From positions 1 through 23,571 of the IMG/VR virus record IMGVR_UViG_3300032032_000026: a stretch of DNA of 23,571 nucleotides. One strand, 5' to 3'. The notes under the pieces were generated by a model, which worked only from the letters and a program-made list of their open reading frames with translations, ran no database searches and was not told the origin of the DNA. This DNA is from a virus. Positions 693 through 22,452 of the stretch are shown here, one piece after another (within the stretch, counting starts at the first letter, position 1; each line of letters begins with the position of its first letter). Both the position numbers and the translations under genes were made by a program.

Positions 693-858
693 GTATCTCA
701 CACTTTACATAATTACAGTCTGAACATTCCATTTCGGATCGATAACTCTCGACCTTATGAATCAATCTATCGTATTCAGTTCCTACTACTGGGTGAGCAG
801 ACTTGTAGTAGTCACAGGCTTGGAGTAGGTGTGCTACATCTTGTTCATGAAATTGCAT
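673..858 (-). CDS. Small protein with a Cys/His cluster, function unknown
   Basis: 61 residues, not recognised. The N-terminal half is helical-looking (HEQDVAHLLQACDYY). The C-terminal half holds C45-x2-C48-x4-C53-x2-H56, a spacing that could bind a metal such as zinc, although it is not a spacing I can assign to a named finger family. It starts at 858 by TAATG overlap with the stop of the upstream gene, which indicates translational coupling. Its end overlaps the start of the oxygenase by about 20 nt. No promoter is visible directly upstream, so it is probably expressed with its neighbours. Confidence 0.6.
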   Translation of the reverse strand: MQFHEQDVAHLLQACDYYKSAHPVVGTEYDRLIHKVESYRSEMECSDCNYVKCEIHELARP

Positions 859-3051: not shown

Positions 3052-3052
3052 A

Positions 3053-11074: not shown

Positions 11075-11365
11075 ATGGCTGGACTTAGAGATAGAGAAGC
11101 ACCTATTGGTGAGTATAGGAATAGAGAACACCTATACTCTAGGGTAGATTTACCGTTCACTGGTGATCCAAGTACGATACCTTATGATGTGGGAAAGAAA
11201 TATGAAGAACGTCCTATCATAGCAATAGGTACCACAAAAAATATTTACGGGAAGAGGTATTATCTCATAGTACAAGGAGATAAGACCCATTCCCGTCAAA
11301 GGTATGAATTCGATGAGAAGCATGATTTGATCTCATCAAAGTTTTTAGGATTAGAAGTTACTTAG
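11075..11365 (+). CDS. Plus-strand hypothetical protein, 96 aa
   Basis: The frame is open from further upstream, but the first ATG with a sensible N-terminus is at 11075 (MAGLRDREAPIGEYRNRE), giving 96 residues; the upstream part would need a non-ATG start inside the divergent gene's leader. The protein is basic with many Arg, Lys and Tyr (KNIYGKRYYLIVQGDK; RQRYEFDEKHDL). It looks like a small beta protein, and no family is recognised. No competing minus-strand gene covers 11031-11357. It is divergent from the protease gene and its stop overlaps, tail to tail, the stop of the 77-residue coiled-coil gene by 8 nt. It is the only credible plus-strand gene here. Confidence 0.72.
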   Translation: MAGLRDREAPIGEYRNREHLYSRVDLPFTGDPSTIPYDVGKKYEERPIIAIGTTKNIYGKRYYLIVQGDKTHSRQRYEFDEKHDLISSKFLGLEVT

Positions 11366-11591
11366 TTTTAACATCCTTTGGAGGTATTGCTACTGGTGGG
11401 GCATTAGTCCCCGCAGGTCCAGGACCAGTACCTTCTTCATTTTGAGTAGCGAGACGCAACCCTTCAATAGCTCCACCTAAGCGTAGGAGCTGATCTTCTC
11501 GTGCCTTTAAAGCTTCTTTAAGTTCAGCTACTTCTGCTCTAACTTTACTTTGCTGTTCAGTAAAGTCGGTAATCATTTCTTCAATAGTCAT
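11358..11591 (-). CDS. Small coiled-coil protein, 77 aa (last gene of the oxygenase operon)
   Basis: Residues about 1-50 are a strongly predicted coiled coil by heptad pattern (MTIEEMITDFTEQQSKVRAE, then VAELKEALKAREDQLLRLGG). The tail from about residue 52 is disordered and Pro/Gly-rich (GTGPGPAGTNAPPVAIPP). The segment RLGGAIEGL matches RLEGAIEAL in the adjacent upstream protein, so the two are probably ancient duplicates. It overlaps that gene by 4 nt (ATGA). An oligomeric accessory or structural role is plausible but unproven. It ends at the convergent plus-strand gene. Confidence 0.7.
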   Translation of the reverse strand: MTIEEMITDFTEQQSKVRAEVAELKEALKAREDQLLRLGGAIEGLRLATQNEEGTGPGPAGTNAPPVAIPPKDVKTK

Positions 11592-11881
11592 TTAGATTCC
11601 TCACGTTTAATAAGAGATTCCACACCAATTACTTGTGTGCGTACGATATCTAGTGCTTCAATAGCACCCTCAAGACGATTCACTTTATTGCGAGCGTCAT
11701 TAACTTCAGTTAAATCAATCCTTGTCATAAGACTAGAATTCTTTTCTAACTCTTCTTCCTTTTCTTTGACATCCGCACGAGCCTGAGTAAGTTGACTTAA
11801 AAAGTCCTCCCATACCTGGTCGAATGTCCATCCCTCTTGCTGAGTTTCCTCAGTAGTGGGAGCTGTGTTTTCATCAGACAT
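11588..11881 (-). CDS. Small coiled-coil protein, 97 aa
   Basis: Acidic N-terminus rich in Thr and Glu (MSDENTAPTTEETQQEGW), then FDQVWEDFLSQLTQARADVK leading into a long charged helix with heptads (EKEEELEKNSS...EVNDARNKVNRLEGAIEAL). RLEGAIEAL is shared with the next protein. It starts within the stop region of the upstream oxygenase (ATGTCTGA, 8-nt overlap) and overlaps its downstream partner by 4 nt, so all three are translationally coupled. No enzyme motif. The pair may form a hetero-oligomer, which is inference from their similarity and linkage. Confidence 0.7.
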   Translation of the reverse strand: MSDENTAPTTEETQQEGWTFDQVWEDFLSQLTQARADVKEKEEELEKNSSLMTRIDLTEVNDARNKVNRLEGAIEALDIVRTQVIGVESLIKREESK

Positions 11882-12488
11882 AATTTTGTACTTCGTCTTT
11901 AATGTGCTGTTGGGTCATAGTATAGGGAGTAGCAAGATAAGGACGAGTGTCATATCTCAAGTCACTGTACTCACCATCAGCGTACACGAACTGTAAGAAA
12001 GCATTTACATGTTCCCTACCAGTATACTTTTCCCTCCAATGAGGAATAGTTCCCGTATATATTACCACATCTCCTGGTTCTAAGTCAACCCTCAACTCCT
12101 GCCCCATCCATTCAAATAGTAAATCCCATTGAGTATCTCTTGCAAGAGAGACGTTAACTGCCAACTGCGAAGAGCGGCGATCAGTATGTTTTATCAACTC
12201 ACTTCCCTCTGTATATATGCGACCATAGGAATAGGTCGGATGGAGATCCGTACCTAAAATTTTCTCTACAATAGGTTGAACATATAGACTTAATGCTTCA
12301 AAGCATAGTGGAGAATACCAAGAAAAACAACCTGGTACTGTGGGATCATTATAACCTTCCTTATTGCCCATGGCAAGTAAGGCATCCCTCATCAATCTGA
12401 ATTCAATATAAGCAAATTCAACTATCGATAGAGGGATCAAACCCTTCTTGACTTTTAGTATTGGGGAATGTGTAATTACGTCGGTCAT
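11874..12488 (-). CDS. Prolyl-hydroxylase-like 2OG-Fe(II) oxygenase
   Basis: 204 residues. The first metal motif is H101-x-D103 in ELIKHTDRRSSQLAVNVSL and the distal ligand H150 is in GTIPHWREKY. The sequence PTYSYGRIY just before it and LEPGDVVIYTGTIPHW are typical of a phage/marine-bacterial 2OG family whose members keep the phrase KKHxDRPSCE. The ATG at 12488 makes a 71-nt overlap with the upstream gene. I keep it because the stretch before the next Met (LSIVEFAYIEFRLMRDALL) also fits the family's usual N-terminal helix. The alternative start is the Met at 12392. Substrate unknown; family members hydroxylate proline or other residues in proteins or free amino acids. Confidence 0.75.
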   Translation of the reverse strand: MTDVITHSPILKVKKGLIPLSIVEFAYIEFRLMRDALLAMGNKEGYNDPTVPGCFSWYSPLCFEALSLYVQPIVEKILGTDLHPTYSYGRIYTEGSELIKHTDRRSSQLAVNVSLARDTQWDLLFEWMGQELRVDLEPGDVVIYTGTIPHWREKYTGREHVNAFLQFVYADGEYSDLRYDTRPYLATPYTMTQQHIKDEVQNYV

Positions 12489-13149
12489 AATGTTGACTGT
12501 TATATATGGTAGGCATACAGGGTATGCTCATTGATAACCTTTCTCCATTAGGAGATGCTTTGTGAAAAGCCCTGTCTGGTATGTATAATAGATCTCCAGG
12601 ATTCATATCTCCTTCCCAATCAATTACCATCTCTTCTTCATTGTGATAGAGATCATTCCGAGAATGGTATAATGCTGTTGCTCTATTCTTATATACCTTC
12701 CATGGTGTAGTACCCTTAGTCTGTATTATAAGGTTAGCAAAATGGTCATAGTGACATTTGAATGATCCACCCAAACCCCTACCACCATATACATGGGTAC
12801 AGCAATTTACATTAAACTCCCTTTCTACATCAGAACATAAGTCTTTTATATATTGATTAGATCTACTATATCCAACGATAACAAAACCCAATCCATTTAT
12901 CAAATGATCCCATACAACTTCCTTATCAACGTCTGGAGTAGGTGCCCAGTAGGGCTTGTACGTTCCTAACTCCCTCTTAGTACCATCAGAGTTTATTAAC
13001 TCCCAACCCATATCAGAACGAGATAACGCATCCTCTACATGAGTCCAATTACAATACTTTTCTGGTTCTTGTAGGAACCCTTTTATATGTACAGCACCAT
13101 CGTTGTGAATAAAATCACGACTGGCGCATAAACTGTTTAACGAGACCAT
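12418..13149 (-). CDS. JmjC/cupin-like Fe(II) oxygenase
   Basis: 243 residues. The central block FKCHYDHFANLIIQTKGTTPW has H133-x-D135 followed by the Q and the T-x-P-W-K-V-Y strand that mark the JmjC/Cupin_4 (ribosomal-oxygenase-like) group. The distal His is H196 in IPDRAFHKASPNGERLSMSI. MNPGDLLYIP is the usual strand before it. Characterised relatives hydroxylate protein side chains, which points to a protein substrate here by family inference. The ATG at 13149 has a Shine-Dalgarno GAAAGG 11 nt upstream (13161-13166) and overlaps the previous gene by 35 nt. This is the only member of this subgroup in the island. Confidence 0.75.
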   Translation of the reverse strand: MVSLNSLCASRDFIHNDGAVHIKGFLQEPEKYCNWTHVEDALSRSDMGWELINSDGTKRELGTYKPYWAPTPDVDKEVVWDHLINGLGFVIVGYSRSNQYIKDLCSDVEREFNVNCCTHVYGGRGLGGSFKCHYDHFANLIIQTKGTTPWKVYKNRATALYHSRNDLYHNEEEMVIDWEGDMNPGDLLYIPDRAFHKASPNGERLSMSIPCMPTIYNSQHYDRRNYTFPNTKSQEGFDPSIDS

Positions 13150-13741
13150 GGTTATGATTACCTTTCTTTACGAGGTTAATTGTAATAGCTATCCTAGCAG
13201 GACATTCCTTAGGACATGAACTTGCGTGATAGTGTTTGCCATTGAAAGCAAATAGTTTATTCTTCTCTGGATGACACTTACCAAGTATAGTATACTTCTC
13301 AGATTCCTGATGCTCATTGAATACTACAGTAGGTCCATCTGATTCATTAATATAATATAAGCATGTGTAATGCTCACCAACTGATGTCTCTGGATAATCT
13401 ACATGTGGAGCATTGTGTTCCTGATGTTGATCAAATATTGAAGGGAAGTTCATCCCTACTCTAATCCTAGCTAGGTACCACTCCTCTCCATCTAGTTCCA
13501 ATGCGTCTAGAATATAATGGTACATGAATGAAAAACTAGGATACCACTCACTAGCTTTACCATCAACAAATGGAGTGTGATGAAACCCAGGTTGACTTGG
13601 AAGAATCTCAGTTACTTTAGTCCTATCTTCAGGAGCAGTGGTAACATCATCAATCCAATACCAAGGAAATATATCAGATGTAACTACATCATGTATCTCA
13701 TGTGCTAATGAGATTGGGAAAAAATTTCTAAACTCTTTCAT
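13115..13741 (-). CDS. 2OG-Fe(II) oxygenase, prolyl-hydroxylase type
   Basis: 208 residues. APHVDYPETS supplies H113-x-D115; YHASSCP supplies the distal H172; PARIAITINL supplies R183 for 2-oxoglutarate. The strand GEHYTCLYYINESDGPTVVFN between them is the usual double-stranded beta-helix core with a product-side Glu/His region. The C-terminus is basic and His-rich (KKGNHNHGLVKQFMRQ). It starts by ATGA overlap at 13738-13741 and runs 35 nt into the next gene. Substrate is not deducible. The HxD/H triad makes an active oxygenase likely. Confidence 0.78.
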   Translation of the reverse strand: MKEFRNFFPISLAHEIHDVVTSDIFPWYWIDDVTTAPEDRTKVTEILPSQPGFHHTPFVDGKASEWYPSFSFMYHYILDALELDGEEWYLARIRVGMNFPSIFDQHQEHNAPHVDYPETSVGEHYTCLYYINESDGPTVVFNEHQESEKYTILGKCHPEKNKLFAFNGKHYHASSCPKECPARIAITINLVKKGNHNHGLVKQFMRQS

Positions 13742-14301
13742 CGTAAATTAAATGCTAAAGAAATGCGGTCCTCTTCAGACTCGTTTGGTAGTACTTGATG
13801 TTTGACCCATGCTGGAAATATTATAGCACGATTTACCTTAGGTTTGTACATCCACTGAGCACTACTATATCTAGTGTTGTCAGGGCAAATAGATCCTAAA
13901 GCATAATCATTACCATCCCTAGTGAAACAAAGATCACCAGAGTTCTCTTGTGCTTTAATATAAAAGACACCAGAGAATCTTGATACAGGGTGTACATGGG
14001 GTTGATTGAATCCACCTTTAGGATTGATGTTAACCCATAGGTTATCCATCTTAGGATAGTCTCCACGACATCCTAAATCATCTGCTAGATGTGTTACCTC
14101 ATTCTCCATCCATTCAACGAAAGGTTTTAATGGAGTACCACCAAACTCTTCGATATCATTAGACTGCCAACCACCTACGTTCGATACATCTCTACCTGTA
14201 TCCTCCTCTTTTATTCTACGACACCAATACTCTATAGAACCTAAATCAAACTCTAAGTCAAATATCCATATAGGTGTAGGGAAGATCTCATCTAATATCA
14301 T
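13738..14301 (-). CDS. TIGR02466-type 2OG-Fe(II) oxygenase
   Basis: 187 residues, a compact family length. The N-terminus MILDEIFPTPIWIFDLEF is the usual start for this group (short strand, FPTP-like). GFNQPHVHPVSRFSGVFYI holds H102 and H104; FPAWVKHQVLPNESEEDRIS holds H168 and R179. As in other TIGR02466 members the first motif is HxH rather than HxD, so the carboxylate ligand may be absent or supplied elsewhere. It is coupled on both sides by ATGA overlaps. Its FPxxVKHxV block is shared with the products at 15118-15723 and 93-692. Confidence 0.82.
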   Translation of the reverse strand: MILDEIFPTPIWIFDLEFDLGSIEYWCRRIKEEDTGRDVSNVGGWQSNDIEEFGGTPLKPFVEWMENEVTHLADDLGCRGDYPKMDNLWVNINPKGGFNQPHVHPVSRFSGVFYIKAQENSGDLCFTRDGNDYALGSICPDNTRYSSAQWMYKPKVNRAIIFPAWVKHQVLPNESEEDRISLAFNLR

Positions 14302-15125
14302 TTATCCCATGGTGTAGGAGAAAAATTCAATGGAGTATACTTAAATCCAAAGCAATGACTCCATCTGAAATCTACACCATCCGCAATATAAGGTGAGTGT
14401 GGAGTGTTAGCATTATAGATTGTCATCGTACCATGCTTGGCAGGAGCAAATCCTATTCTTCTAAATCCCCACTCGTAAGCTTCCTTGTCTGTAAAGTTAT
14501 TCCATCCTGGTTTATGATCGGTACCGCTTCCGTACCAACTATGCCACTTTTTATAGAGCTGGTGATTTGGATCGATTTGGAAATCGTACCGTCCTTCACT
14601 AATCGTTCCTTTATACTCATAGAGGGTTGTGCCTGTTGTTCCTGGTTCATGTTCTGATAACCATAGGTTTGAAATGAAACCTTCATCATATGGATAATCC
14701 ACATGAGGTAAAGCACTATATCTAACTGGGTTAGATTCAGATCTTAAAAAGATATTAGCCCACTCAGATAAACGTTCATCATTTATACAGGACTCTTCTT
14801 TAGGTCTCTTAAAATAATTTATGACAACAAAGTCTCTTACTGCTTGAGCAAGAGGGTTAAACAACCAGTAAGGTATGTGATGAACAATGAAGGGATTGGC
14901 ATCAAAGGCAGTCTCTTGATTGTTCATATCCTCTATAGGATAACACTCACATATATCCTTTAACCTATCCAATCCACCATCAGCAAATATATTATCTACT
15001 TCCCAATGTGTACTGTGATACACATGTGTCCACTCCTCTGCTGGCTTGATGATATCAGTACCATCATACAGGTGTCTGGGGGTTGGTAAAACTTTCATAA
15101 AGTTTCCTGATACAGTCTCAATCAT
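14298..15125 (-). CDS. DUF6445-like Fe(II)/2OG oxygenase
   Basis: About 275 residues. YSALPHVDYPYDEG gives H141-x-D143 and NANTPHSPYIADG gives the distal H243 with a trailing FRWSHCFGFKY strand. The long loop between them (GTTGTTLYEYKG to WHSWYGSGTD) is Trp/Tyr-rich. In bacteria, DUF6445-type proteins are often encoded near tryptophan-halogenase-like genes, and this neighbourhood repeats that pattern; the family match is by eye. The ORF can be opened at a TTG at 15131, but the ATG at 15125 fits the 8-nt overlap with the preceding stop (ATGATTGA) and is preferred. Confidence 0.68.
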   Translation of the reverse strand: MIETVSGNFMKVLPTPRHLYDGTDIIKPAEEWTHVYHSTHWEVDNIFADGGLDRLKDICECYPIEDMNNQETAFDANPFIVHHIPYWLFNPLAQAVRDFVVINYFKRPKEESCINDERLSEWANIFLRSESNPVRYSALPHVDYPYDEGFISNLWLSEHEPGTTGTTLYEYKGTISEGRYDFQIDPNHQLYKKWHSWYGSGTDHKPGWNNFTDKEAYEWGFRRIGFAPAKHGTMTIYNANTPHSPYIADGVDFRWSHCFGFKYTPLNFSPTPWDK

Positions 15126-15723
15126 GGCCAAAGTAATTAAATGAAATACAGATTCTAGGACTTACATTACTAGATGGTACCCTATGTTTAACCCATGATG
15201 GGAACAGAAGGAACTCATACTGTTCTGCTGGAACCTCAATAGAATGGTCGTTAGTACCTAACATGGTAGCATACGGTGTCATGCGTAGTATAGCATCGTT
15301 AGGATTTATGAACCTTATGTTAGCAGACCCTTTGGGTTTTCTAAAATAGAATACACCAGATACTTGAGATTGACCCCACCAACCATCTCTATGGTTGTGA
15401 GCAACAGTAGTGTCACCTGAGAAATGTTTATTAGCCCAAGCATCATGAGCATCAATATACATCATCTTCCTGTAACCAAGTACCTGTACCCAGAACTCTC
15501 TGACAGCCATGGTCAATGGTTTGAACAACCATTGTAATTCTTCAAACTCATGTAGGTTTAATGTCTGTGGTCCAGTTGATAGACCAGACTCACCTTCAAA
15601 CTCACCTAAAGTCTTGTCCAGAAACATTCTGTTCAGACAATCTTCAGTATGGGCATCATCATATTCATTAGGTATGATGCGACCTCTTTCAACTGGTACT
15701 CCAAATAAAGGTAAGACACTCAT
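15118..15723 (-). CDS. TIGR02466-type 2OG-Fe(II) oxygenase
   Basis: 201 residues. MSVLPLFGVPVERG is a typical family start. TTVAHNHRDGWWGQSQVSGVFYF contains H109/H111, and LLFPSWVKHRVPSSN contains H180, with R190 in SPRICISFNY. The middle block (INPNDAILRMTPYATMLG) matches the family's F-x-D/N-P-R region. The frame opens from a TTG at 15729, but the ATG at 15723 makes a clean ATGA overlap with the DUF6065-like stop. It is paralogous to the product at 13738-14301. Function within the island is unknown. Confidence 0.82.
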   Translation of the reverse strand: MSVLPLFGVPVERGRIIPNEYDDAHTEDCLNRMFLDKTLGEFEGESGLSTGPQTLNLHEFEELQWLFKPLTMAVREFWVQVLGYRKMMYIDAHDAWANKHFSGDTTVAHNHRDGWWGQSQVSGVFYFRKPKGSANIRFINPNDAILRMTPYATMLGTNDHSIEVPAEQYEFLLFPSWVKHRVPSSNVSPRICISFNYFGHD

Positions 15724-16538
15724 TTCCAATACTTCCTCAATATCTTATTCGTCTTCAACTGCCTCTGCGTTACACTAACATTCTCAGGGAACTGGTTATA
15801 AGCAGTGTACATAAACTCATCTTCTAATCTATAATCTTTTTGTTCAGCACAATCTATACTGACATCTAAGTCTTCTAATAATCTTCTAGATATTGGTATG
15901 TACATACAGAGTGGAGTACCTGCTTTAACTAATTCATCTCCTTCTAATACGTGCCACCATAACTGGACATTGACTTCATAAGCAGAACGTGGATCGAGTA
16001 TACCAGCTATTGCTGAGAAGCGAGTCTCATTAACAAATGGTACTTTTGTTTGTAAGAATACAACATCATCATCAGCCTGTACACGCCAAGTAGTATTCAC
16101 CTTTACTACCTGATCAACAGTAGTATCCTTGCTACTGTCCAGTAACCATTTGGATACGTTCTCATCATGAAGCACCACGTAGTCAGATCCAGGTGGACTG
16201 AAACCCGTCTGCGTGAATAGAATAGTATGTCCGTCCCCGTTAGTATGTACTTTAAAATCAGCAGGAGCATGGACAATATATCCAGTCCTCATGATTTGAT
16301 TAACAGCAGGGCATCTCCCTATAGAATTTGATTCCTCACGTTCTCCTCTCAGTAGAGGACCAATAGGACATCTACTTAATCTATCTTGAAACTCTTTCTT
16401 TTCTTCCTTACGCCAGGTTCTATCTAAGTCAACAGATTTAGTTATTGGATGAAGTGTATGTACTCCATGATTTAATGAAAAAAATCTTGCTCTTGGGTTC
16501 TTCTTACGAAATAAATTCAAAGGATTCATCATTATCAT
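15720..16538 (-). CDS. DUF6065-like protein of the halogenase island
   Basis: 272 residues, basic N-terminus (NLFRKKNPRARFF). Central features are SIGRCPAVNQIMRTGYIVHAPADF (residues 72-95) and, near the C-terminus, GTPLCMYIPISRRLLEDLD (207-225). These resemble the DUF6065 layout, with an RCxx...GW/GY-xx-xxP-x-D block and a late G-x-P-x-x-x-x-P-x-x-R block. Bacterial DUF6065 genes often neighbour tryptophan-halogenase-like genes, which supports the call but does not prove it. No oxygenase triad is visible. ATGs occur at 16538, 16532 and 16529; I use the first. It overlaps the halogenase end by 35 nt. A carrier, scaffold or substrate-binding role is possible. Confidence 0.6.
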   Translation of the reverse strand: MIMMNPLNLFRKKNPRARFFSLNHGVHTLHPITKSVDLDRTWRKEEKKEFQDRLSRCPIGPLLRGEREESNSIGRCPAVNQIMRTGYIVHAPADFKVHTNGDGHTILFTQTGFSPPGSDYVVLHDENVSKWLLDSSKDTTVDQVVKVNTTWRVQADDDVVFLQTKVPFVNETRFSAIAGILDPRSAYEVNVQLWWHVLEGDELVKAGTPLCMYIPISRRLLEDLDVSIDCAEQKDYRLEDEFMYTAYNQFPENVSVTQRQLKTNKILRKYWK

Positions 16539-18063
16539 ATATGTTCTTCAGTAGGTAATCATAATGAACAGGCTGCGTCTTTAAGTATCTTAGCACAGAT
16601 TCCTTATAATGCTTGTGCCTGTCAGCAGAGTTCCTTGCTTCTGCCTCTGAGTATTCACCTCTATTTATGACGTATCTTGTAGTCGCTTTTGTACAGGGAT
16701 GGTACCCTAGACCAGCAGCAATATATGTAGTACCTCCCAATGCCTGAGGAGCATTTGAGATATTAAAAGAGTGGATCAATTCTTGGTATAACCGTGGTGA
16801 CCGTACTATCTTATCATTCATTTCTTCATGAGTGAGAGGAGACCTTTCATGGAACTGTCTCCAGTAAGCAGTATCAGTTCTTGGAGACAAGTAATAGTGT
16901 ATCTCAAGAAACTCTTTCATTGCTTCCATCTCATAGTTGACTGAGTGGTTGTAACCATCTACATCAAGTTTTGATATAAACCCATCTCTACGTTGGAAGA
17001 CATCAATTAATCTTATAATATTTTCATGTGTACTGAAGAGTCCAGTGGATTCCAAAGGTTCTAAGAACCCCTGTGACAACCCAATACCAATAACATTCTT
17101 CACCCATGCGTCCATCCTTCTACCATGTCTGAACTTAATGTGTTGTAGATCACCCTCAAACCCTCCCAGGTGCTCTCTGAAGGTCTCCTCAGCATCTTCT
17201 TCAGTAGTAAACTTACTTGAGTAAACATATCCCTTACCGATACGATTCCATAAAGGAATTGTCCATACCCATCCTTCAGGCATAGCATACCCATCAGTAG
17301 TATTGATCATCTGTTCACGACGATTCTCATATGGAATCCTCGCTGCTATAGCACTATCATTAGGTAGGAATTCAAAGTCTAGATGAGGTACTCCCATGAT
17401 ACCACCTAAGAGAGCAGACTTAAATCCTGTACAGTCAATAAAGTAATCAGCATGATACATCATACCTTGACTGTCTACTAGGTAATCAATCTCACCATCA
17501 CTATTAAAGACACCCTTTTCTATATCAGCCCAAGAATGTTCAACACTCTGACATCTATTATCCTTTAACCAATTCCCAAATTTATCTGAATCAAAATGAT
17601 ATGCTCTATTCCATGTTGGACTGAAGTTACGAAGATAGTTGCCACTACCATTTACTCTATTAGTCTGAGCAAGATATGTTATAGGATTGTAGAACTCGCA
17701 GAATGTATTATCTGGAAACTCATCTGGATATAAGTTATGAAGATGGTACCAATCAACTATACCACCATCTGAATAATCTGTCTCACCAAATGGATACTGG
17801 AATGTTGTTCCATCTCCTTTCCAATTGGTAAATTGAATCGATACTTTATAGGTAGCATTACAAGCTGCCATCCACTCCTTGTCTTCAAGTTCAAGTAGAT
17901 TCAGGTACCTATTAAAATGTCCAAGTGTAGACTCTCCTACACTCATCTTTGGTTGATGATAACTCTCTACTAATTGTATCTTATGTTCTGGAAACAAATG
18001 GCAGAAAGCGGCAGCAGTCATCCATCCAGATGAACCACCACCAACTATACAAATTTTAGCCAT
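16504..18063 (-). CDS. Flavin-dependent (tryptophan-type) halogenase B
   Basis: 519 residues, full length for the family. FAD site GGGSSG (residues 8-13) then SVGEST (41-46). The essential Lys that forms the chloramine-type intermediate is K73 in ATYKVSIQF (PrnA K79 equivalent). GWVWTIP (264-270) is the classic W-x-W-x-I-P motif that bars monooxygenase chemistry, and FLEPLESTG (333-341) carries the family F-x-x-P-x-x-S-x-G motif and the Glu (E338) corresponding to PrnA E346. All catalytic elements are present, so activity is likely; it would need reduced FAD from a host reductase. Marine cyanophage Syn10 encodes a related halogenase (VirX1) reported to iodinate diverse substrates. The natural substrate here is unknown. 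ATG at 18063 overlaps the upstream halogenase by 8 nt. Confidence 0.92.
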   Translation of the reverse strand: MAKICIVGGGSSGWMTAAAFCHLFPEHKIQLVESYHQPKMSVGESTLGHFNRYLNLLELEDKEWMAACNATYKVSIQFTNWKGDGTTFQYPFGETDYSDGGIVDWYHLHNLYPDEFPDNTFCEFYNPITYLAQTNRVNGSGNYLRNFSPTWNRAYHFDSDKFGNWLKDNRCQSVEHSWADIEKGVFNSDGEIDYLVDSQGMMYHADYFIDCTGFKSALLGGIMGVPHLDFEFLPNDSAIAARIPYENRREQMINTTDGYAMPEGWVWTIPLWNRIGKGYVYSSKFTTEEDAEETFREHLGGFEGDLQHIKFRHGRRMDAWVKNVIGIGLSQGFLEPLESTGLFSTHENIIRLIDVFQRRDGFISKLDVDGYNHSVNYEMEAMKEFLEIHYYLSPRTDTAYWRQFHERSPLTHEEMNDKIVRSPRLYQELIHSFNISNAPQALGGTTYIAAGLGYHPCTKATTRYVINRGEYSEAEARNSADRHKHYKESVLRYLKTQPVHYDYLLKNIYDNDESFEFIS

Positions 18064-19621
18064 GTTCGTAATAAGGATTATCTATGCCAGCTACATCTTC
18101 GTAATAAAAGTCCCAAGGTTCAGGGAACTTATCTATCTCTTTTATAATCTCATCGCTGAGTTGATACCCTGATGATAACTTAACAAAGGAAGCTAAGTCA
18201 ATGTTATTACGTTTATCCATGTAATCGCATGTCCATTCAGTAGCAGGAGTATGCCTATGACCAGCAGCAATGTAAGAATTACCAGCTAGGTTCTGGAAGT
18301 TCCAGTCAGATATTTGATCCATCCTCAATGGGAACTTATCAAATGGGTATGCTCTATACTCATCCCTTGCCATGTCAGAAAGATAATCTATATCCTCACT
18401 GATATATTTCCAGTATGGGGTATCATCCCTAGTGGTCATCATATAATGATTAGCCACAAAATGAGCAAAAGAAATGAATTGTTTGCGAGATCTATGGTTA
18501 AACTGATCTCTTATCAATGTATTAACTTTACCATTATGTACTGACAAACTATCTGCTAAGAAGATAGCAAAGTTATGTACACTAAGTAAGCCATTGGATT
18601 CTAATGGTTCAATGAACCCACCAGCCAAACCTATACCTACAACGTTCTTATGCCATATCTCTTTCGATACTCCATTTCTCCATTCGATCAAACGAGGTTC
18701 ACCTATGATCTCATGATCACCTAGGTACTCTTTAAATTCCTTTAATGCTTCCTCATCAGAACAGAACTTATTACTGAAGTTATATCCTATTCCCATTCTT
18801 GTTGTTAACGGGACATGCCAAACCCAACCATTATCAAGTGCTGTACACTTGGTATGGTTTAACATCTCAGTCTTCTTATCAATGTACTTGACTCTCGCAG
18901 CCCAAGCACGATTGTTAATTAACCATGGGAACTCTTCCCACTCAACACCCATGTACTCCCCTAAGAGGAGTGATTTAAATCCAGTACAATCTATAAACAG
19001 ATCAGCATCATACTCATGCTTATTACCTATTAGTGTTGTAATATTTCCTGACTCATCCTTCTCACAATCTTGAATAGTATCGTGATGATGCTTTACTCCA
19101 CGAGGACCACAGAATTCTCTCTTCAACCACTTAGTAAACTTAACAGCATCTAAGTGATACCCTGAGTTTTTCGTGTAATCGAAACTTTGAAATTGATCTA
19201 CTACTACTTTATTATCTTCTATTATTTTCCAATATGGAACCATCCACTCAGCAAAAGACATGTCTGGTTTGCCACCAGTTGCCTGTAAGTGAAAGAACCA
19301 TTCTAAAATATCACAACTTGAATTAGAGGGAGGAGCACCATCATAGAATGGGTAATGGAAATCTCCATACTCACTGAAGTTCTCGAATTTTACACTATAC
19401 TTATACGTCGCTTCACATTCATCCATCCATACATCAGAGATATTCATCTCCTTACACCAGTCCCTAAACAATTGAGTAGTGGATTCTCCTACCCCAATCG
19501 TCGGTATGTCTGGCGAATCTATGACTGTTATATCAAGCCATGGATGTGATTTAATCAGAGTAGAAGCAGTTATCCAACCAGCAGATCCGCCTCCAACTAT
19601 ACAAATCTTCTCAATTTTCAT
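18056..19621 (-). CDS. Flavin-dependent (tryptophan-type) halogenase A
   Basis: 521 residues, paralogous to the downstream halogenase but clearly divergent. FAD site GGGSAG (10-15), GVGEST (43-48), K74 in ATYKYSVKF, GWVWHVP (265-271; V replaces I of W-x-W-x-I-P), FIEPLESNG (336-344) with E341, and NSYIAAG near the C-terminus. The conservative I-to-V change does not argue against activity. No flavin reductase gene is in the window, so the cofactor would come from the host. Its ATG lies 17 nt after the small tail-fibre-type gene, behind the late box at 20177. Pairing of two different halogenases suggests different substrates, positions, or a heteromeric enzyme; none of these can be chosen from sequence alone. 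Confidence 0.92.
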   Translation of the reverse strand: MKIEKICIVGGGSAGWITASTLIKSHPWLDITVIDSPDIPTIGVGESTTQLFRDWCKEMNISDVWMDECEATYKYSVKFENFSEYGDFHYPFYDGAPPSNSSCDILEWFFHLQATGGKPDMSFAEWMVPYWKIIEDNKVVVDQFQSFDYTKNSGYHLDAVKFTKWLKREFCGPRGVKHHHDTIQDCEKDESGNITTLIGNKHEYDADLFIDCTGFKSLLLGEYMGVEWEEFPWLINNRAWAARVKYIDKKTEMLNHTKCTALDNGWVWHVPLTTRMGIGYNFSNKFCSDEEALKEFKEYLGDHEIIGEPRLIEWRNGVSKEIWHKNVVGIGLAGGFIEPLESNGLLSVHNFAIFLADSLSVHNGKVNTLIRDQFNHRSRKQFISFAHFVANHYMMTTRDDTPYWKYISEDIDYLSDMARDEYRAYPFDKFPLRMDQISDWNFQNLAGNSYIAAGHRHTPATEWTCDYMDKRNNIDLASFVKLSSGYQLSDEIIKEIDKFPEPWDFYYEDVAGIDNPYYEHG

Positions 19622-19638
19622 AACAAAGTATTATTGTG

Positions 19639-20154
19639 CTATCCAGTATATATAGGTCTCCCCGTAACAGGGTCTGGACCCCAACCTTCTTCATATACTG
19701 TTGGGTTCTTAAAGGTAGTTACCTTCTGTCTCTTATTAGCAGGAAGACTATTCCATGCTGGAGCCTCCTCAGTTCCCATCTCAAATTCTTTCTTATCCGC
19801 ATAGAAAGAAGCATCAGCATCAGCAGCATCTTGATTAACAATAGCGTTCTTAACTGCTGTTATACTATCCCTCCATTTGGTAGTACCATTTATTTGGTCC
19901 CAATACAGCATATCGAGTTGATCCTCGACTTGACCATATTCAACCTTTCTTTTCATTTGTTGGTTACGTTCTAAGCGATCCTCGCTATTAAAGAACTCAC
20001 CATTATAGAGTACCCATAAGTTAGTGACATTATCATCGTCACATTGTACCCATCTGACCTGGGCATCATCACCCTGGTATACCTCGAACTCATCACCTAC
20101 ATCAACGATATCTGTGATAAAGCCTCGGTAGTCTACTAGACAACTTTTAGCCAT
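19639..20154 (-). CDS. Tail-fibre-associated structural or chaperone-type protein
   Basis: 171 residues, acidic. The N-terminal 60 residues (GFITDIVDVGDEFEVYQGDD; RWVQCDDD; LWVLYNGEFF) form a small beta region of the kind found at ends of tail-fibre assembly proteins. The middle has YGQVEDQLDMLYWDQINGTT and WRDSITAVKNAI, a widespread phage tail-fibre-linked pattern (QLDxLxxD...W...I..VK). The C-terminus is Pro/Gly-rich. It follows the adhesin genes after 25 nt, has its own late box, and is first in the transcript that carries the halogenases. Assignment is by pattern and position. Confidence 0.62.
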   Translation of the reverse strand: MAKSCLVDYRGFITDIVDVGDEFEVYQGDDAQVRWVQCDDDNVTNLWVLYNGEFFNSEDRLERNQQMKRKVEYGQVEDQLDMLYWDQINGTTKWRDSITAVKNAIVNQDAADADASFYADKKEFEMGTEEAPAWNSLPANKRQKVTTFKNPTVYEEGWGPDPVTGRPIYTG

Positions 20155-20176: not shown

Positions 20177-20184
20177 TATTTAGC
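20177..20184 (-). promoter_or_regulatory. Late promoter box (GCTAAATA) ahead of the halogenase operon
   Basis: GCTAAATA on the minus strand overlaps the last codons of the third adhesin gene and lies 22 nt before the ATG at 20154. The C in position two is a variant, but box and spacing match those at 79, 1645 and 11061. No other box is seen in a gap between here and 11358, so it is the best candidate for the promoter of the whole halogenase-oxygenase cassette, placing it in late expression. Confidence 0.55.
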
Positions 20185-20935
20185 GAAATTCCATAACGAT
20201 AACAGCACCTGCCATACCATTCGCTCCTTGATAAGAACGCTGATATCCAGATGTCCCACCACCACCTCTAGCAGCTCTTAACTGTGAGGATCGTGTGCCT
20301 TGTGACCAGTTACCATGGGCACTCATTGTGCCACTACCGAAGAAGCCACCGCCACCATGACCAAAATAGTTCATGTGACCAATGCCGCCCCCACCGATAA
20401 TGTTGAGGTTTCCTCCAGTTGATTCACCACCCAGTCCACCACAATGTTGATAAACTTGGTTAGCACCTAGTCCACCATAAGCAGAACAGTAGTTTCCAAA
20501 GGAAGATGTGTTACCTCCACCACCGTTTCCAGAGTAGTATGTACCACTTCCAGAACCTGAACCGACTGTACAGTATACACTTGTTACACCACGTACGTCG
20601 ATAACTTCTTCACAATATCCTCCAGCACCACCTGATTCAGCATGTCCTGAACCACCACCACCGCCTCCAATGACGCGAACAATGATTCTATTAATGCCAC
20701 TTGGTCGGTACCATGTACCACTATTGAAGAATGTTTGTATACTTGCTGGTCCTATTTGTTCGTAAGTAGCATTGCTACCATCACTGATTAAAAATTTCCC
20801 TTCCTTGTTCAATGGACTTGGAGGGATAGAGCTACTATTCATAGTAGTTCCACCGAGTGATAGGTTATACCCTTCGGGGATCAGAATAGTTTCACCCGAC
20901 GCAGCGTCGAGTTCGTTAGTGTATACGTTTGACAT
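20180..20935 (-). CDS. Glycine-rich adhesin-like tail fibre protein (copy 3)
   Basis: 251 residues. An N-terminal attachment part (residues 1-60, ending GKFLISDGSNATYEQ) is shared by all three copies. Residues 68-92 (TFFNSGTWYRPSGINRIIVR followed by six glycines) match the glycine-rich fibre-tip domain. Residues 100-235 are dense in Gly with NQVYQHCGGLGG and the end GMAGAVIVMEF. The architecture recalls T-even gp38-type adhesins, whose glycine-rich loops contact the receptor, but orthology is not claimed. Glycine runs and aromatic positions differ between copies. It starts 2 nt after the previous stop. Confidence 0.8.
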   Translation of the reverse strand: MSNVYTNELDAASGETILIPEGYNLSLGGTTMNSSSIPPSPLNKEGKFLISDGSNATYEQIGPASIQTFFNSGTWYRPSGINRIIVRVIGGGGGGSGHAESGGAGGYCEEVIDVRGVTSVYCTVGSGSGSGTYYSGNGGGGNTSSFGNYCSAYGGLGANQVYQHCGGLGGESTGGNLNIIGGGGIGHMNYFGHGGGGFFGSGTMSAHGNWSQGTRSSQLRAARGGGGTSGYQRSYQGANGMAGAVIVMEFR

Positions 20936-20937
20936 AG

Positions 20938-21699
20938 TTATCTAAAGTTCCAGACACAGACGACACCAGACATTCCCCTAGCACCACGTCTTTGTCCGTG
21001 ATATCCAGGTGAACCACCACTGCCTCTAGCAGCCCTGTATTGATAGTTATAAGCGTAGTGACCTCCACGAGGGTGACCAGTAGCACCAGCACCACCAAAG
21101 AAAGATCCACCACCAGGCATACCAGACCAATATTCATGACCTGATCCACCTCCACCATAGATGTTCATCTGACCACCTGAGCCACCGCCAGGAAGTCCAC
21201 CACAGTGTTGATAATTACGGTTAGCACCATTTCCACCACCAGCAGAAAGGTAGTTACCAAAAGAAGAGGAATTACCGTTAGCAGCACCACCAGAATAATA
21301 GGTTCCACCCCATGATCCAGGTTGTCCTACAGTAACAGATATAGATGATACACCTGTTACATCAATAATTTCTTCTGAGTATCCACCAGCACCGCCAGCT
21401 TCTCCCACACCAGATCCTGCTCCTCCTGCTCCGCAGATTCTAACAAGAATTCTTTTTACTCCAGTTGGTCTTGACCATGTACCATTAGATGTCCATACAG
21501 ACATAGAAACAGCACCATGTTCTTCCCAGTTACGAGATGATCCATTACTTATAAGGATCTTACCATTCTGCCCACTAGGTGATGGCATAACACTAGAAGA
21601 GTCTAGGGTTTTGCTACCTAATCTAAGTGAATATCCTGACTGAATAGTTACGTTCGACCCTGATTGGGGTACTAATGTATTAACTTTAAGTAAACTCAT
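20938..21699 (-). CDS. Glycine-rich adhesin-like tail fibre protein (copy 2)
   Basis: 253 residues. The N-terminus MSLLKVNTLVPQSGSNVTI and LRLGSKTLDSSSVMPSPSGQ are the marine T4-like fibre-attachment pattern. Then VWTSNGTWSRPTGVKRILVR enters the glycine-rich domain, which contains GGAGGYSEEIIDV, NRNYQHCGGLPGG and GGSFFGGAG and ends GMSGVVCVWNF. The interior differs from its sisters in loop sequence while the framework is kept, as expected for receptor-binding tips under diversifying selection. It starts directly after the previous stop (TAAATG). Receptor binding is inferred from family and place. Confidence 0.82.
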   Translation of the reverse strand: MSLLKVNTLVPQSGSNVTIQSGYSLRLGSKTLDSSSVMPSPSGQNGKILISNGSSRNWEEHGAVSMSVWTSNGTWSRPTGVKRILVRICGAGGAGSGVGEAGGAGGYSEEIIDVTGVSSISVTVGQPGSWGGTYYSGGAANGNSSSFGNYLSAGGGNGANRNYQHCGGLPGGGSGGQMNIYGGGGSGHEYWSGMPGGGSFFGGAGATGHPRGGHYAYNYQYRAARGSGGSPGYHGQRRGARGMSGVVCVWNFR

Positions 21700-22452
21700 T
21701 TATTTAAACTCCCAGACTACGATCATTCCACTCATACCTTCTGGACCCAGATAGGATCTATGCCAAGCATTAGCACTTCCCGAACCAGGCGCACAGCGTG
21801 TTTGGTGGTTACGAGAATAATCTCCACCACGAGGGTGACCTCTAGCAGCACATCCACCAAAGAAGGATGAACCACCAGCACCATTATATCTCCCGTGAGC
21901 AGATCCACCGCCCCCGTACATATTAACATCTCCTCCAGTTCCTACTCCACCTAAACCACCAGCGTGCTGATAAGTTTGGTTAGCACCGTCACCACCTGTA
22001 GCAGTACAGAATGAACCGAATGATGAAGCAGTACCAGCTCCCGATCTACCTGAATAGTATGTACCAGTTCCACCTACACCAATAACAACTGAGACTGAAC
22101 TGACACCACTAACATCGCATATACGTTCAGTGAATCCACCAGCTCCACCACATTCTCCATGTCCAGATCCTCCTCCACCAGCAGCAACAAGTCTAACCAT
22201 AACGGTATTAACACCAGTAGACTTACTATAACTACCAGAACTTGTAAAGGTCTGAATTGAGGTAGCTCCGTATGTATCGTATATAATTGATTCTCCATCA
22301 CTACCAACTGCTTTGTTGGTTTGTCCAGAAGCACTTGGTAGAACTGAGGACTCATTAATTTTGGCACCACCCAATGACAACGATGTTGTCGCTGGAATAG
22401 TAATAGTTGAACCTGAGTATGCTCTCAGGTTATTTACGTATAATCGACTCAT
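21700..22452 (-). CDS. Glycine-rich adhesin-like tail fibre protein (copy 1)
   Basis: 250 residues. The N-terminus MSRLYVNNLRAYSGSTITI and LSLGGAKINESSVLPSASGQ match copies 2 and 3. The glycine-rich part starts at TFTSSGSYSKSTGVNTVMVR and holds GGAGGFTERICDV, NQTYQHAGGLGG and SSFFGGCAARGHPRGG. The end GMSGMIVVWEF is the common closing strand. Compared with copy 2 it has more Cys (CDV, FCTATGG, GGCAAR, TRCAPG). It begins 6 nt after the long tail fibre gene. Likely the same role as the other two: exchangeable or combined fibre tips. Confidence 0.82.
   Translation of the reverse strand: MSRLYVNNLRAYSGSTITIPATTSLSLGGAKINESSVLPSASGQTNKAVGSDGESIIYDTYGATSIQTFTSSGSYSKSTGVNTVMVRLVAAGGGGSGHGECGGAGGFTERICDVSGVSSVSVVIGVGGTGTYYSGRSGAGTASSFGSFCTATGGDGANQTYQHAGGLGGVGTGGDVNMYGGGGSAHGRYNGAGGSSFFGGCAARGHPRGGDYSRNHQTRCAPGSGSANAWHRSYLGPEGMSGMIVVWEFK

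What the first reader, a model, noticed from the sequence alone, without database searches (positions are those of the whole stretch)
11358..20154. Late halogenase-oxygenase island: two halogenases, a DUF6065-like protein and six iron oxygenases in one coupled operon
Seen: after the first gene and the 17-nt gap behind it, every junction overlaps (8, 35, 4, 8, 4, 4, 35, 71, 8, 4 nt) over about 8.8 kb, with a late box ahead of the set and structural genes on both sides. Known: flavin-dependent halogenases occur in marine cyanophages (VirX1 of Syn10), and TIGR02466, DUF6445 and DUF6065 proteins associate with halogenase-like genes in bacteria. Inference: because no pathway for a small halogenated product is present and expression is probably late, the enzymes may halogenate and hydroxylate a protein or peptide (tail fibre, adhesin, giant protease or a host surface protein). 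A combined two-halogenase, multi-oxygenase phage cassette of this size is not one I recognise as described.
Basis: partly seen in the sequence, partly recalled or inferred. Interest (0 to 1): 0.85.

Follow-up and report, generated by a model that had tools for sequence, protein, structure and literature searches.

The report
Cyanophage island modifying tail-fibre adhesins
A marine cyanobacterial virus carries two halogenases and six iron oxygenases in one gene block that, in related viruses, almost always sits right behind the genes for its host-binding tail-fibre tips, which suggests that the virus chemically alters its own grappling hooks; this is inferred from comparison and has not been shown by experiment.

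Summary
In detail: one overlapping block (11358-20154, minus strand) with two flavin-dependent halogenases (FDHs), a dUTPase-fold protein and six oxygenases with conserved metal motifs. It is not unique: the same order occurs in cultured cyanophages (S-RIM44, Sf-FP1), and in Syn10, whose VirX1 is the ortholog of the second FDH. The constant partner is upstream: one to three glycine-rich proteins ("GLY") and a small protein. The GLY model matches the receptor-binding fibre of cyanophage Pam3 (Z 21). In IMG/VR, 63 of 63 testable GLY loci have an FDH within 3.5 kb; 55 of 57 loci found through the dUTPase-fold protein carry GLY and FDH. FDH-linked GLYs share four near-invariant residues (E100, Y135, H165, H188; 126 of 127 each) at loop apices, all absent from the three closest FDH-less relatives. 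One oxygenase is nearest to protein histidyl/arginyl hydroxylases. Late-promoter boxes are enriched at the head of the module. Best reading: a late maturation island that halogenates and hydroxylates the phage's own adhesin tips (0.6). The substrate is inferred; the residue contrast is one evolutionary split.

The parts
22459..23571 (-). C-terminal part of a long tail fibre (runs off the window)
   Evidence: phrog_5342 tail fiber protein, E 7.7e-36
21700..22452 (-). GLY1: glycine-rich tail-fibre tip (adhesin) paralog
   Evidence: phrog_863 'tail fiber assembly' E 4.9e-44; PF21722 Gly_rich_2 23.9 bits, just under the 24.3 cut-off; carries E, Y, H, H at the four key positions
20938..21699 (-). 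GLY2: glycine-rich tail-fibre tip (adhesin) paralog; its AlphaFold2 model was used
   Evidence: PF21722 24.9 vs 24.3 bits; model pLDDT 91.1; VIA Z 21.0 to Pam3 fibre 7ypx_A
20180..20935 (-). GLY3: glycine-rich tail-fibre tip (adhesin) paralog
   Evidence: phrog_863 E 4.2e-46; 52% identical to GLY2; carries E, Y, H, H at the four key positions
21400..21402 (-). codon of E100 in GLY2 (near-invariant, apex of loop 1 by DSSP)
   Evidence: 126 of 127 nr FDH-linked GLYs; 0 of 33 aligned FDH-less domains
21295..21297 (-). codon of Y135 in GLY2 (near-invariant, apex of loop 2): candidate halogenation site (inference)
   Evidence: 126 of 127; 2 of 28 aligned FDH-less
21205..21207 (-). codon of H165 in GLY2 (near-invariant, apex of loop 3): candidate hydroxylation site (inference)
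   Evidence: 126 of 127; 0 of 20 aligned FDH-less
21136..21138 (-). codon of H188 in GLY2 (near-invariant, apex of loop 4): candidate hydroxylation site (inference)
   Evidence: 126 of 127; 1 of 22 aligned FDH-less
20177..20183 (-). T4-type late-promoter box CTAAATA ahead of g171
   Evidence: box ahead of g171 in 22 of 59 nr upstream regions vs 2.4 expected
19639..20154 (-). g171: small protein between adhesins and enzymes, candidate fibre-assembly chaperone (inference)
   Evidence: phrog_1787; follows GLY in 63 of 63 testable loci and in FDH-less NATL2A-133
18056..19621 (-). FDHA: flavin-dependent halogenase-like enzyme
   Evidence: PF04820 307 bits; phrog_2928; motif WVWHVP and Lys in TYK
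16504..18063 (-). FDHB: flavin-dependent halogenase, ortholog of VirX1 of Syn10
   Evidence: PF04820 340 bits; VirX1 (6qgm) E 2.3e-132; 43% identity in Syn10
15720..16538 (-). D6065: dUTPase-fold protein, phrog_7084
   Evidence: model pLDDT 92.0; VIA Z about 10 to dUTPases
15118..15723 (-). O1: TIGR02466 oxygenase, HxH...H...R
14298..15125 (-). O2: 2OG-type oxygenase, HxD...H...R (PHROG 'minor coat protein')
   Evidence: PF20043 DUF6445 only 14.6 vs 24 bits
13738..14301 (-). O3: TIGR02466 oxygenase, HxH...H...R
   Evidence: 99.5 vs 62.5 bits
13115..13741 (-). O4: 2OG oxygenase (PF13640), HxD...H...R (PHROG 'DNA endonuclease V')
   Evidence: in 84 of 87 cassettes
12418..13149 (-). O5: JmjC_2 oxygenase, HxD...H
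   Evidence: PF08007 56.7 vs 22 bits; family profile hits NO66, MINA, L16 Arg hydroxylase, JMJD5
11874..12488 (-). O6: 2OG-type oxygenase, HxD...H (PHROG 'ferrochelatase')
   Evidence: no Pfam match and no convincing PDB relative
11588..11881 (-). s97: small protein of the module
   Evidence: phrog_20247; in 79 of 87 cassettes
11358..11591 (-). s77: small protein at the end of the block
   Evidence: phrog_580

Best explanation
The island is a late-expressed maturation module for the phage's receptor-binding tail-fibre tips. Up to three glycine-rich adhesins (GLY1-3) and a small protein that is probably their assembly chaperone (g171) are made together with one or two flavin-dependent halogenases and a set of 2OG/JmjC iron oxygenases. 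These enzymes act on the GLY tips before virion assembly: the VirX1-type halogenase on an aromatic side chain, most plausibly near-invariant Tyr135, and the JmjC and other oxygenases on His, Asn, Glu or other residues around the loop apices (H165, H188, E100). Directly seen: gene order, conserved linkage, adhesin fold of the model, intact catalytic motifs, late box. Inferred: that the adhesin is the substrate, which residues are changed, that g171 is a chaperone. Unknown: which halogen, and what the modified tip gains.
For: (1) Linkage. GLY-profile scan of IMG/VR: of 76 loci, 13 had under 3.5 kb downstream; all 63 others have g171 within 1.5 kb and an FDH within 3.5 kb (nr 33 of 33). D6065 scan: of 57 testable loci (of 80), 55 have FDH, g171 and GLY upstream; 40 of 41 testable have at least 3 oxygenases downstream. 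Cultured phages: all 20 records with a GLY match carry an FDHB match; 9 of 9 GLY-bearing genomes inspected have GLY-g171-FDH. (2) The module sits next to gp13 in some phages and elsewhere in others; P-HM2 has other genes at the gp13 site and no FDH, GLY or oxygenase hit there. (3) GLY model matches Pam3 fibre, Z 21.0, 2.2 A over 180 residues; in Pam3 the fibre has its own chaperone, absent from virions (PMC9608196, abstract and passages). (4) E100, Y135, H165, H188 in 126 of 127 nr FDH-linked GLYs from loci not chosen on GLY; 0 of 33, 2 of 28, 0 of 20, 1 of 22 aligned in FDH-less homologs under 64 bits plus NATL2A-133, where structural F147 stays in 22 of 29. The three closest FDH-less relatives (L343 137, NATL2A-133 118, L353 113 bits) lack all four, while 23 distant FDH-linked GLYs at 116-221 bits keep them in 22, 21, 23, 23. 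They lie near loop midpoints (98, 134, 165.5, 189.5). (5) O5 profile: NO66 5.3e-13, MINA 8e-9, L16 Arg hydroxylase 5.7e-7, JMJD5 1.2e-4. (6) Late boxes: GLY 46 of 172 vs 5.4 expected, g171 22 of 59 vs 2.4, D6065 0 of 81, O4 0 of 137; FDHB 14 of 59 when g171 precedes it, 0 of 36 when an FDH precedes it. (7) FDH-like QhpG dihydroxylates a Trp within a protein (PMC7876137, abstract and passages); VirX1 is a trimer with a large accessible active site (PMC8407142 passages).
Against: No modified protein, enzyme assay or structure of a complex. The FDH-linked GLYs form one side of a single split (100/97, with L343 and L353 added: 97/68), so the residue contrast is one evolutionary event; most FDH-less homologs are far more divergent (8-64 bits), and 23 of those 38 have under 3.5 kb downstream. 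E/Y/H/H could be a metal site instead. The GLY-scan patterns include E100 and H165, so that scan samples this clade only. FDHs also occur without GLY: 11 of 49 testable FDH-scan loci, S-B64 and S-MbCM6, and all 80 bacterial loci fetched. Three of 87 cassettes show FDHB but no oxygenase or D6065 hit. Enzyme sets vary and no clean enzyme-residue pairing was found. VirX1 accepts small arenes in vitro. Loop apices were read from secondary structure, not coordinates.
Confidence: 0.6

Rival explanations
1. The enzymes make or alter a small halogenated or hydroxylated metabolite (antibiotic, signal, capsule decoration) that helps the host or phage, and sit by the fibre genes by chance or through hitch-hiking.
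For: Published readings: antibiotic protection (PMC2984593 and PMC9964418 passages), host metabolite activity (PMC10452541 passages), secondary metabolite or capsule for a different FDH cluster in S-SSM6a (PMC7824862 passages). VirX1 accepts many small arenes.
Against: No scaffold-building gene was recognised in the block; 63 of 63 testable GLY loci are FDH-linked and the block keeps GLY-g171 in different genome positions; O5 belongs with protein hydroxylases.
Confidence: 0.13
2. The enzymes modify another protein: the long fibre, another virion protein, or a host surface protein.
For: Fibres and other virion proteins are nearby; variable enzyme sets would fit several substrates. FDHs also sit beside other adhesin-type genes (two other Gly_rich_2 proteins in L164, Laminin_G_3 proteins in L161 and L132).
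Against: GLY-g171 is the constant neighbour; the S8 protease is in 14 and gp13 in 10 of 87 cassettes within 9.5 kb downstream.
Confidence: 0.14
3. E100, Y135, H165 and H188 form a metal or ligand site at the tip, and the enzymes have a different target.
For: E, H, H and Y are common metal ligands (recalled), and the residues sit at apices of successive loops.
Against: Does not explain the FDH and oxygenase linkage; the closest FDH-less relatives lack the set.
Confidence: 0.08
4. The oxygenases consume 2-oxoglutarate to tune the host nitrogen signal or energy, as proposed for cyanophage 2OG enzymes.
For: Proposed in PMC3037559 (passages) and repeated in PMC9602691 (passages).
Against: Does not explain several different conserved oxygenases, the halogenases, or the fixed link to an adhesin.
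Confidence: 0.05

Closest known systems
VirX1 of cyanophage Syn10 (PDB 6QGM)
   Same: FDHB is its ortholog (E 2.3e-132; 43% identity). Syn10 CPUG_00131 matches the 6QGM chain over its full length and lies in the order GLY-g171-FDHA-FDHB-D6065-oxygenases.
   Different: The natural substrate and gene context of VirX1 were not discussed in the passages seen; the VirX1 paper itself was not held. Syn10 has more oxygenase-type genes in the block and another genome position.
Pam3 gp24/gp25 tail fibre and chaperone
   Same: The GLY model matches gp24 (Z 21.0); adhesin plus a small chaperone-like gene.
   Different: Pam3 has a hypervariable tip (PMC9608196 passages); here four apex residues are near-invariant and modifying-type enzymes follow. 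g171 has no PDB sequence relative, so it is not shown to be a gp25 homolog.
QhpG, FDH-like monooxygenase of cysteine tryptophylquinone maturation
   Same: FDH-like flavoenzyme acting on an aromatic residue of a partner protein (PMC7876137); FDHA has a sub-threshold QhpG match.
   Different: 43.8 vs 240 bits: not a QhpG; QhpG hydroxylates.
JmjC protein hydroxylases NO66/MINA/L16 arginine hydroxylase/JMJD5
   Same: O5 belongs to JmjC_2 and its profile hits these, with HxD...H.
   Different: The known members act on ribosomal or other cellular proteins (recalled).
S-SSM6a halogenase/carbamoyltransferase cluster (PMC7824862)
   Same: FDH with 2OG and cupin oxygenases in a cyanophage (passages).
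   Different: Predicted there for a secondary metabolite or capsule, with carbamoyl transferases; the S-SSM6a FDH is only 27% identical to FDHB (H58).

Membership tests
Flavin-dependent (tryptophan) halogenase | PF04820 over cut-off | tested here: met
   307 and 340 bits vs 21
Flavin-dependent (tryptophan) halogenase | GxGxxG, catalytic Lys, WxWxIP | tested here: met
   GGGSSGW, TYK, WVWTIP in FDHB; FDHA has WVWHVP (Val for Ile)
Flavin-dependent (tryptophan) halogenase | halogenating activity | not testable with these tools
   only the Syn10 ortholog VirX1 is reported to halogenate (PMC8407142 passages)
2OG-Fe(II) oxygenase (O2, O4, O6) | HxD/E...H metal triad, distal Arg | tested here: met
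   triad in 100% of 38, 45 and 44 nr rows; distal Arg 100% in O2 and O4; in O6 a conserved Arg152 stands two residues after the last His
TIGR02466 (O1, O3) | NCBIfam cut-off 62.5 bits | tested here: met
   64.7 and 99.5 bits
2OG-Fe(II) oxygenase (O1, O3) | carboxylate in the HxD/E...H triad | tested here: not met
   HxH...H instead, 100% of 45 rows each
JmjC_2 / ribosomal-oxygenase-type protein hydroxylase (O5) | PF08007 over cut-off and HxD...H | tested here: met
   56.7 vs 22 bits; H133, D135, H196 in 100% of 45 rows
JmjC_2 / ribosomal-oxygenase-type protein hydroxylase (O5) | hydroxylates a protein residue | not testable with these tools
   no assay
DUF6065 (PF19541) | match over cut-off | tested here: not met
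   window protein no hit at E<=1; 1 of 5 relatives at E 0.089
dUTPase | dUTPase fold | tested here: inconclusive
   VIA best Z 10.1, about 115-140 aligned residues of 272; active-site motifs not tested
DUF6445 (PF20043) for O2 | match over cut-off | tested here: not met
   14.6 vs 24 bits
Gly_rich_2 / glycine-rich tail-fibre tip | PF21722 over cut-off | tested here: inconclusive
   24.9 (GLY2) over, 21.6 and 23.9 (GLY3, GLY1) under 24.3 bits
Gly_rich_2 / glycine-rich tail-fibre tip | TNF-like plus glycine-loop fold of Pam3 gp24 | tested here: met
   Z 21.0, rmsd 2.2 A, 180 residues, predicted model
T4-type late operon | late box ahead of the first gene, conserved | tested here: met
   22 of 59 nr g171 upstream regions vs 2.4 expected; transcription not measured
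QhpG | NCBIfam equivalog cut-off 240 bits | tested here: not met
   43.8 bits for FDHA

The most novel reading that the evidence does not exclude
Marine cyanophages carry a dedicated oxidative and halogenating assembly line for their own receptor-binding protein. The VirX1-type halogenase installs I, Br or Cl on near-invariant Tyr135 at an apex of the glycine-rich adhesin tip, and the JmjC/2OG enzymes hydroxylate H165, H188, E100 or neighbours, so the tip uses non-coded side chains to grip the host in seawater. This would be the native role of VirX1 and the first virus-encoded halogenation/hydroxylation of a virion adhesin.
Probability: 0.4. Interest if true: 0.93.

Novelty: categorically new. 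Interest (0 to 1): 0.85.

Why it matters
VirX1 is the first halogenase characterised from a virus and prefers iodide (PMC8407142 passages), and cyanophages carry many 2OG oxygenases whose functions 'have not been specifically investigated' (PMC9602691 passages). The linkage here offers both one testable answer: they mature the host-binding tips. If true, viruses expand the chemistry of their receptor-binding proteins after translation, which bears on host range and on phage protein engineering. Every part belongs to a known enzyme or adhesin family; what I found no description of, in open PMC full text only, is the combined system and its proposed role.

Tried and rejected
Considered and set aside: (a) the giant S8 protease as substrate, within 9.5 kb in 14 of 87 cassettes; (b) PHROG names 'DNA endonuclease V', 'ferrochelatase' and 'minor coat protein' for O4, O6 and O2, at odds with their conserved HxD...H; (c) enzyme-by-residue association to pair each oxygenase with a site: best phi 0.78 (O1-Y215, O2-Y134), confounded by clades, no claim; (d) sequence relatives of O4, O6, O2, g171 and GLY among solved structures: none convincing; (e) bacterial FDH loci: 0 of 80 with GLY, g171 or D6065 in flanks of up to 8 kb; (f) a distant GLY as tblastn query: no match; (g) the NATL2A-133 GLY domain as IMG/VR query: 1 partial relative, as tblastn query: only itself; (h) paper search returned nothing, but its phrase cannot match '2OG-Fe(II)', so it counts for nothing.

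Corrections made on the way: the first D6065 count missed four loci where FDH and D6065 overlap (L039, L054, L061, L070); one search recounts by start position. The motif-scan analysis used 80 of the 120 stretches; one search uses all 120 and its numbers are the ones given for FDH-less relatives (two domains under 15 bits, L303 and L315, left out of the residue counts). The 80-stretch figures were 0 of 25, 2 of 22, 0 of 13, 1 of 15. The 'shuffle' is mononucleotide. GLY alignment A4 used 100 of 133 nr sequences; A6 drops rows from named phages (88 left). The FDH tree used 20 of 80 bacterial loci. Tree 135 left out five long-branch FDH-less rows.

The 87 cassettes are not de-duplicated by contig. 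No coordinates of the models were available, so distances between the four residues were not measured.

Full report
WHAT IS THERE. The window is a 23,571-base linear viral fragment of a T4-like cyanophage (gp13, gp14, gp15, gp16 at 5190-1644). The genes of interest are on the minus strand. In transcription order: end of a long tail fibre; three glycine-rich paralogs GLY1-3 (22452-20180); g171 (20154-19639); two flavin-dependent halogenases FDHA and FDHB; D6065; six oxygenases O1-O6; two small proteins s97 and s77; then a 1946-aa S8 protease and gp13 to gp16.

THE ENZYMES. Both halogenases are far over the Pfam cut-off and keep the flavin motif, the Lys and the WxWxIP-type motif (FDHA with Val for Ile). 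FDHB is the ortholog of VirX1: best PDB match 6qgm, E 2.3e-132, and Syn10 CPUG_00131 matches 6qgm over its full length. O2, O4, O5 and O6 have HxD...H and O1, O3 and the separate O7 have HxH...H with a following Arg; each of these metal-site residues is conserved in 100% of the nr rows aligned (38-45 rows; 14 for O7). O5 is over the JmjC_2 cut-off; the profile of 30 O5 relatives hits NO66 (5.3e-13), MINA (8e-9), a putative asparaginyl hydroxylase (8.8e-9), the L16 arginine hydroxylase (5.7e-7), JMJD5 (1.2e-4) and weakly FIH (0.03), which are hydroxylases of proteins; NO66 and JMJD5 entries also bear demethylase names. O4, O6 and O2 have no convincing sequence relative in the PDB. D6065 has a confident model (pLDDT 92.0) with a dUTPase-like barrel (Foldseek E 4.6e-4; VIA best Z 10.1); its function stays open. 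The DUF6065 label is weak (1 of 5 members at E 0.089).

NOT A ONE-OFF. S-RIM44 has the same order gene for gene from GLY to s77. Sf-FP1 lacks only FDHA in that stretch. Syn10 and P-TIM40 have both FDHs, D6065 and differing oxygenase sets. S-CREM1, Sf-FR1, S-SZBM1, S-WAM1 and P-RSM6 have GLY-g171-FDH followed by oxygenases: 9 of 9 GLY-bearing cultured genomes inspected. Three further FDH-bearing genomes inspected (Sf-CH11, S-B64, S-MbCM6) have no GLY of this family. By tblastn, 20 of 50,697 phage records match GLY2, and all 20 are among the 65 records that match FDHB; all 14 D6065 records are among the 20. In some phages the module lies next to gp13, in others not. P-HM2, the best nucleotide match for gp13/gp14, has other genes between fibre and gp13 and no hit to FDH, oxygenase or GLY profiles there. 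So the module appears to move as a unit.

LINKAGE IN UNCULTURED VIRUSES. Three IMG/VR scans gave 80 D6065 loci (of 309), 78 new FDH loci (of 593 or more) and 76 GLY loci (of 247), annotated with profile HMMs built here. D6065 scan: 57 of 80 loci had 6.5 kb upstream; 55 of these carry FDH, GLY and g171 (nr 32 of 33; exceptions L084, L085), and 40 of 41 with enough downstream sequence have at least three oxygenases, median six. GLY scan: 13 of 76 were too short; 63 of 63 have g171 within 1.5 kb and FDH within 3.5 kb (nr 33 of 33). FDH scan: GLY upstream in 38 of 49 testable (nr 31 of 40). Among the 11 exceptions, some sit by other adhesin-type genes: two other Gly_rich_2 proteins over cut-off in L164 (proteins of the same lengths in Sf-CH11 and, by gene order, a similar L169), two Laminin_G_3 proteins upstream in L161, a Laminin_G_3 protein directly upstream in L132. 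In L126, L149, L163, L166, L167 and L168 I recognised none from ORF lists, but of these only one L163 protein was scanned against families. In bacteria 0 of 80 FDH loci have GLY, g171 or D6065 in the fetched flanks. On an FDH tree of 121 rows the GLY-linked label needs 11 changes against a shuffled mean of 40.1; some 'noGLY' rows there are contig ends.

WHAT GLY IS. GLY1-3 match phrog_863 'tail fiber assembly' and sit at the Pfam Gly_rich_2 cut-off. The AlphaFold2 model of GLY2 (88 sequences, pLDDT 91.1, pTM 0.80) has as best solved match the cyanophage Pam3 fibre: Foldseek E 4.8e-8, VIA Z 21.0, 2.2 A over 180 residues, 27% identity; next Bxb1 tail tip (14.6) and the ALK/LTK glycine-rich domains (8-10). 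In Pam3 this protein is the receptor-binding fibre, its tip is hypervariable, and its chaperone gp25 is not found in virions (PMC9608196, abstract and passages). By position g171 is the candidate counterpart; it has no PDB sequence match.

THE FOUR APEX RESIDUES. In 127 nr GLYs from the D6065 and FDH scans, which were not selected on GLY sequence, the non-glycine positions with at most one exception are E100, Y135, F147, H165 and H188 (126, 126, 127, 126, 126 of 127). F147 is in a strand. The other four fall within 2 residues of the middle of the first four glycine loops by DSSP (midpoints 98, 134, 165.5, 189.5), the place where Pam3 varies most. All three window GLYs carry all four. At locus level at least one paralog carries E100, Y135, H165, H188 in 116, 117, 118, 117 of 118 loci. 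A control set was drawn with a DNA motif for TxxGTWxxPxGV, which covers none of these residues. All 120 fetched stretches: 133 motif ORFs, 79 with a GLY-profile domain. Of 41 domains at 100 bits or more, 29 have an FDH in the stretch; 10 of the other 12 end within 2.5 kb downstream; the remaining two, L343 (137 bits, 4.4 kb downstream) and L353 (113 bits, 8.8 kb downstream), have none. The 38 domains at 8-64 bits show no FDH (15 of them with 3.5 kb or more downstream). In 37 FDH-less domains (36 of those 38 at 15 bits or more, plus NATL2A-133) E100 is 0 of 33, Y135 2 of 28, H165 0 of 20, H188 1 of 22 aligned, F147 22 of 29; gaps are many. The best controls are the three closest FDH-less relatives: podovirus NATL2A-133 (118 bits; GLY-type head followed by a g171 homolog, no FDH or oxygenase profile hit in 47,000 of 47,536 bases), L343 and L353; all three lack all four residues and keep S146-F147. 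FDH-linked GLYs of a distant group score 116-221 bits against the same profile, mostly a little above these, yet keep them in 22, 21, 23 and 23 of 23. Caveat: the FDH-linked GLYs are one side of a single split (100/97; 97/68 with L343 and L353 added and L343 as sister), so this is one evolutionary contrast.

EXPRESSION. The CTAAATA box before g171 overlaps the stop codon of GLY3. Within the window the word is not enriched. Across nr relatives a late box lies within 80 nt upstream of g171 in 22 of 59 (2.4 expected on mononucleotide shuffles), of GLY in 46 of 172 (5.4), of FDHB in 19 of 113 (6.7), of gp13 in 7 of 16 (0.9), but of FDHA in 4 of 65 (3.0), O1 1 of 53 (3.8), O3 4 of 140 (7.0), O6 1 of 56 (2.7), D6065 0 of 81, O4 0 of 137, O5 0 of 66. 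For FDHB the box is present in 14 of 59 cases where g171 precedes it and 0 of 36 where an FDH precedes it. This supports late transcription from the head of the module. Published Syn9 expression data were not held.

HOW IT MOST LIKELY WORKS. Seen: the module, its conservation, the adhesin fold, the enzyme motifs. Inferred: the enzymes mature the GLY tips before or during chaperone-assisted assembly. FDHB is in all 87 cassettes tabulated and O4 in 84, matching near-invariant residues; Tyr135 is the only near-invariant electron-rich aromatic at an apex, so it is my best guess for halogenation, and the two invariant His suit the His-hydroxylase-like O5 or its relatives. But O5 is in only 66 of 87 cassettes while the His are nearly always present, so O5 cannot be their only modifier, and three cassettes show FDHB without any oxygenase or D6065 hit. 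Precedents: QhpG, an FDH-like flavoenzyme, dihydroxylates a Trp within a protein (PMC7876137, abstract and passages); VirX1 is a trimer with an open active site (PMC8407142 passages) and Pam3 gp24 is a trimer.

LITERATURE. Seen as listings, abstracts or passages only. Cyanophage halogenases are read as antibiotic or metabolite enzymes and 2OG oxygenases as host-metabolism, DNA-repair or general protein-modification genes (PMC9964418 and PMC9602691 mention protein modification in a general list). No paper found proposes modification of the phage's own fibre. The VirX1 paper (PMC6875430) and the Syn9 genome paper were not held, so their discussion is unknown to me; subscription literature is missing.

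VERDICT. Real, conserved and undescribed as a module in the text I could search; adhesin maturation is the best reading at 0.6, with the exact chemistry open.

Noticed in passing
window 5190-11030: 1946-aa protein with an S8 subtilase domain and a long repeat-rich part, just upstream of gp13; profile relatives in P-HM2 and in the window's closest relatives (L015-L025).
   Followed up: no
window 93-701: A seventh TIGR02466-like oxygenase (phrog_81, HxH...H) beyond gp16, outside the island.
   Followed up: partly
window 2047-4384: gp14 and gp15 are longer than in S-RIM44 (443 and 334 aa vs 292 and 266) and carry fibre-type insert matches.
   Followed up: no
L006:8924-10513: P-TIM40 protein with a GLY head and an extra C-terminal domain that looks fibrinogen-like by eye.
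   Followed up: no
L043, L046, L052, L065 and relatives, about 8 kb downstream of D6065: Two further divergent FDHA-like genes on the opposite strand; they group together on the FDH tree, apart from the cassette FDHs.
   Followed up: partly
L167, L168: Four tandem D6065 paralogs with several oxygenases and one FDHB, without GLY.
   Followed up: no
window 13115-13741, 11874-12488, 14298-15131: PHROG names 'DNA endonuclease V' (274), 'ferrochelatase' (2954) and 'minor coat protein' (1644) look wrong; members keep a 2OG-type HxD...H, and the names recur in phage record annotation.
   Followed up: yes
GLY positions 134, 164, 166, 215: Residues associated with presence of O2, O3/O5, O1, O1 respectively across 87 cassettes; clade-confounded, so only a lead for pairing enzymes with sites.
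   Followed up: partly
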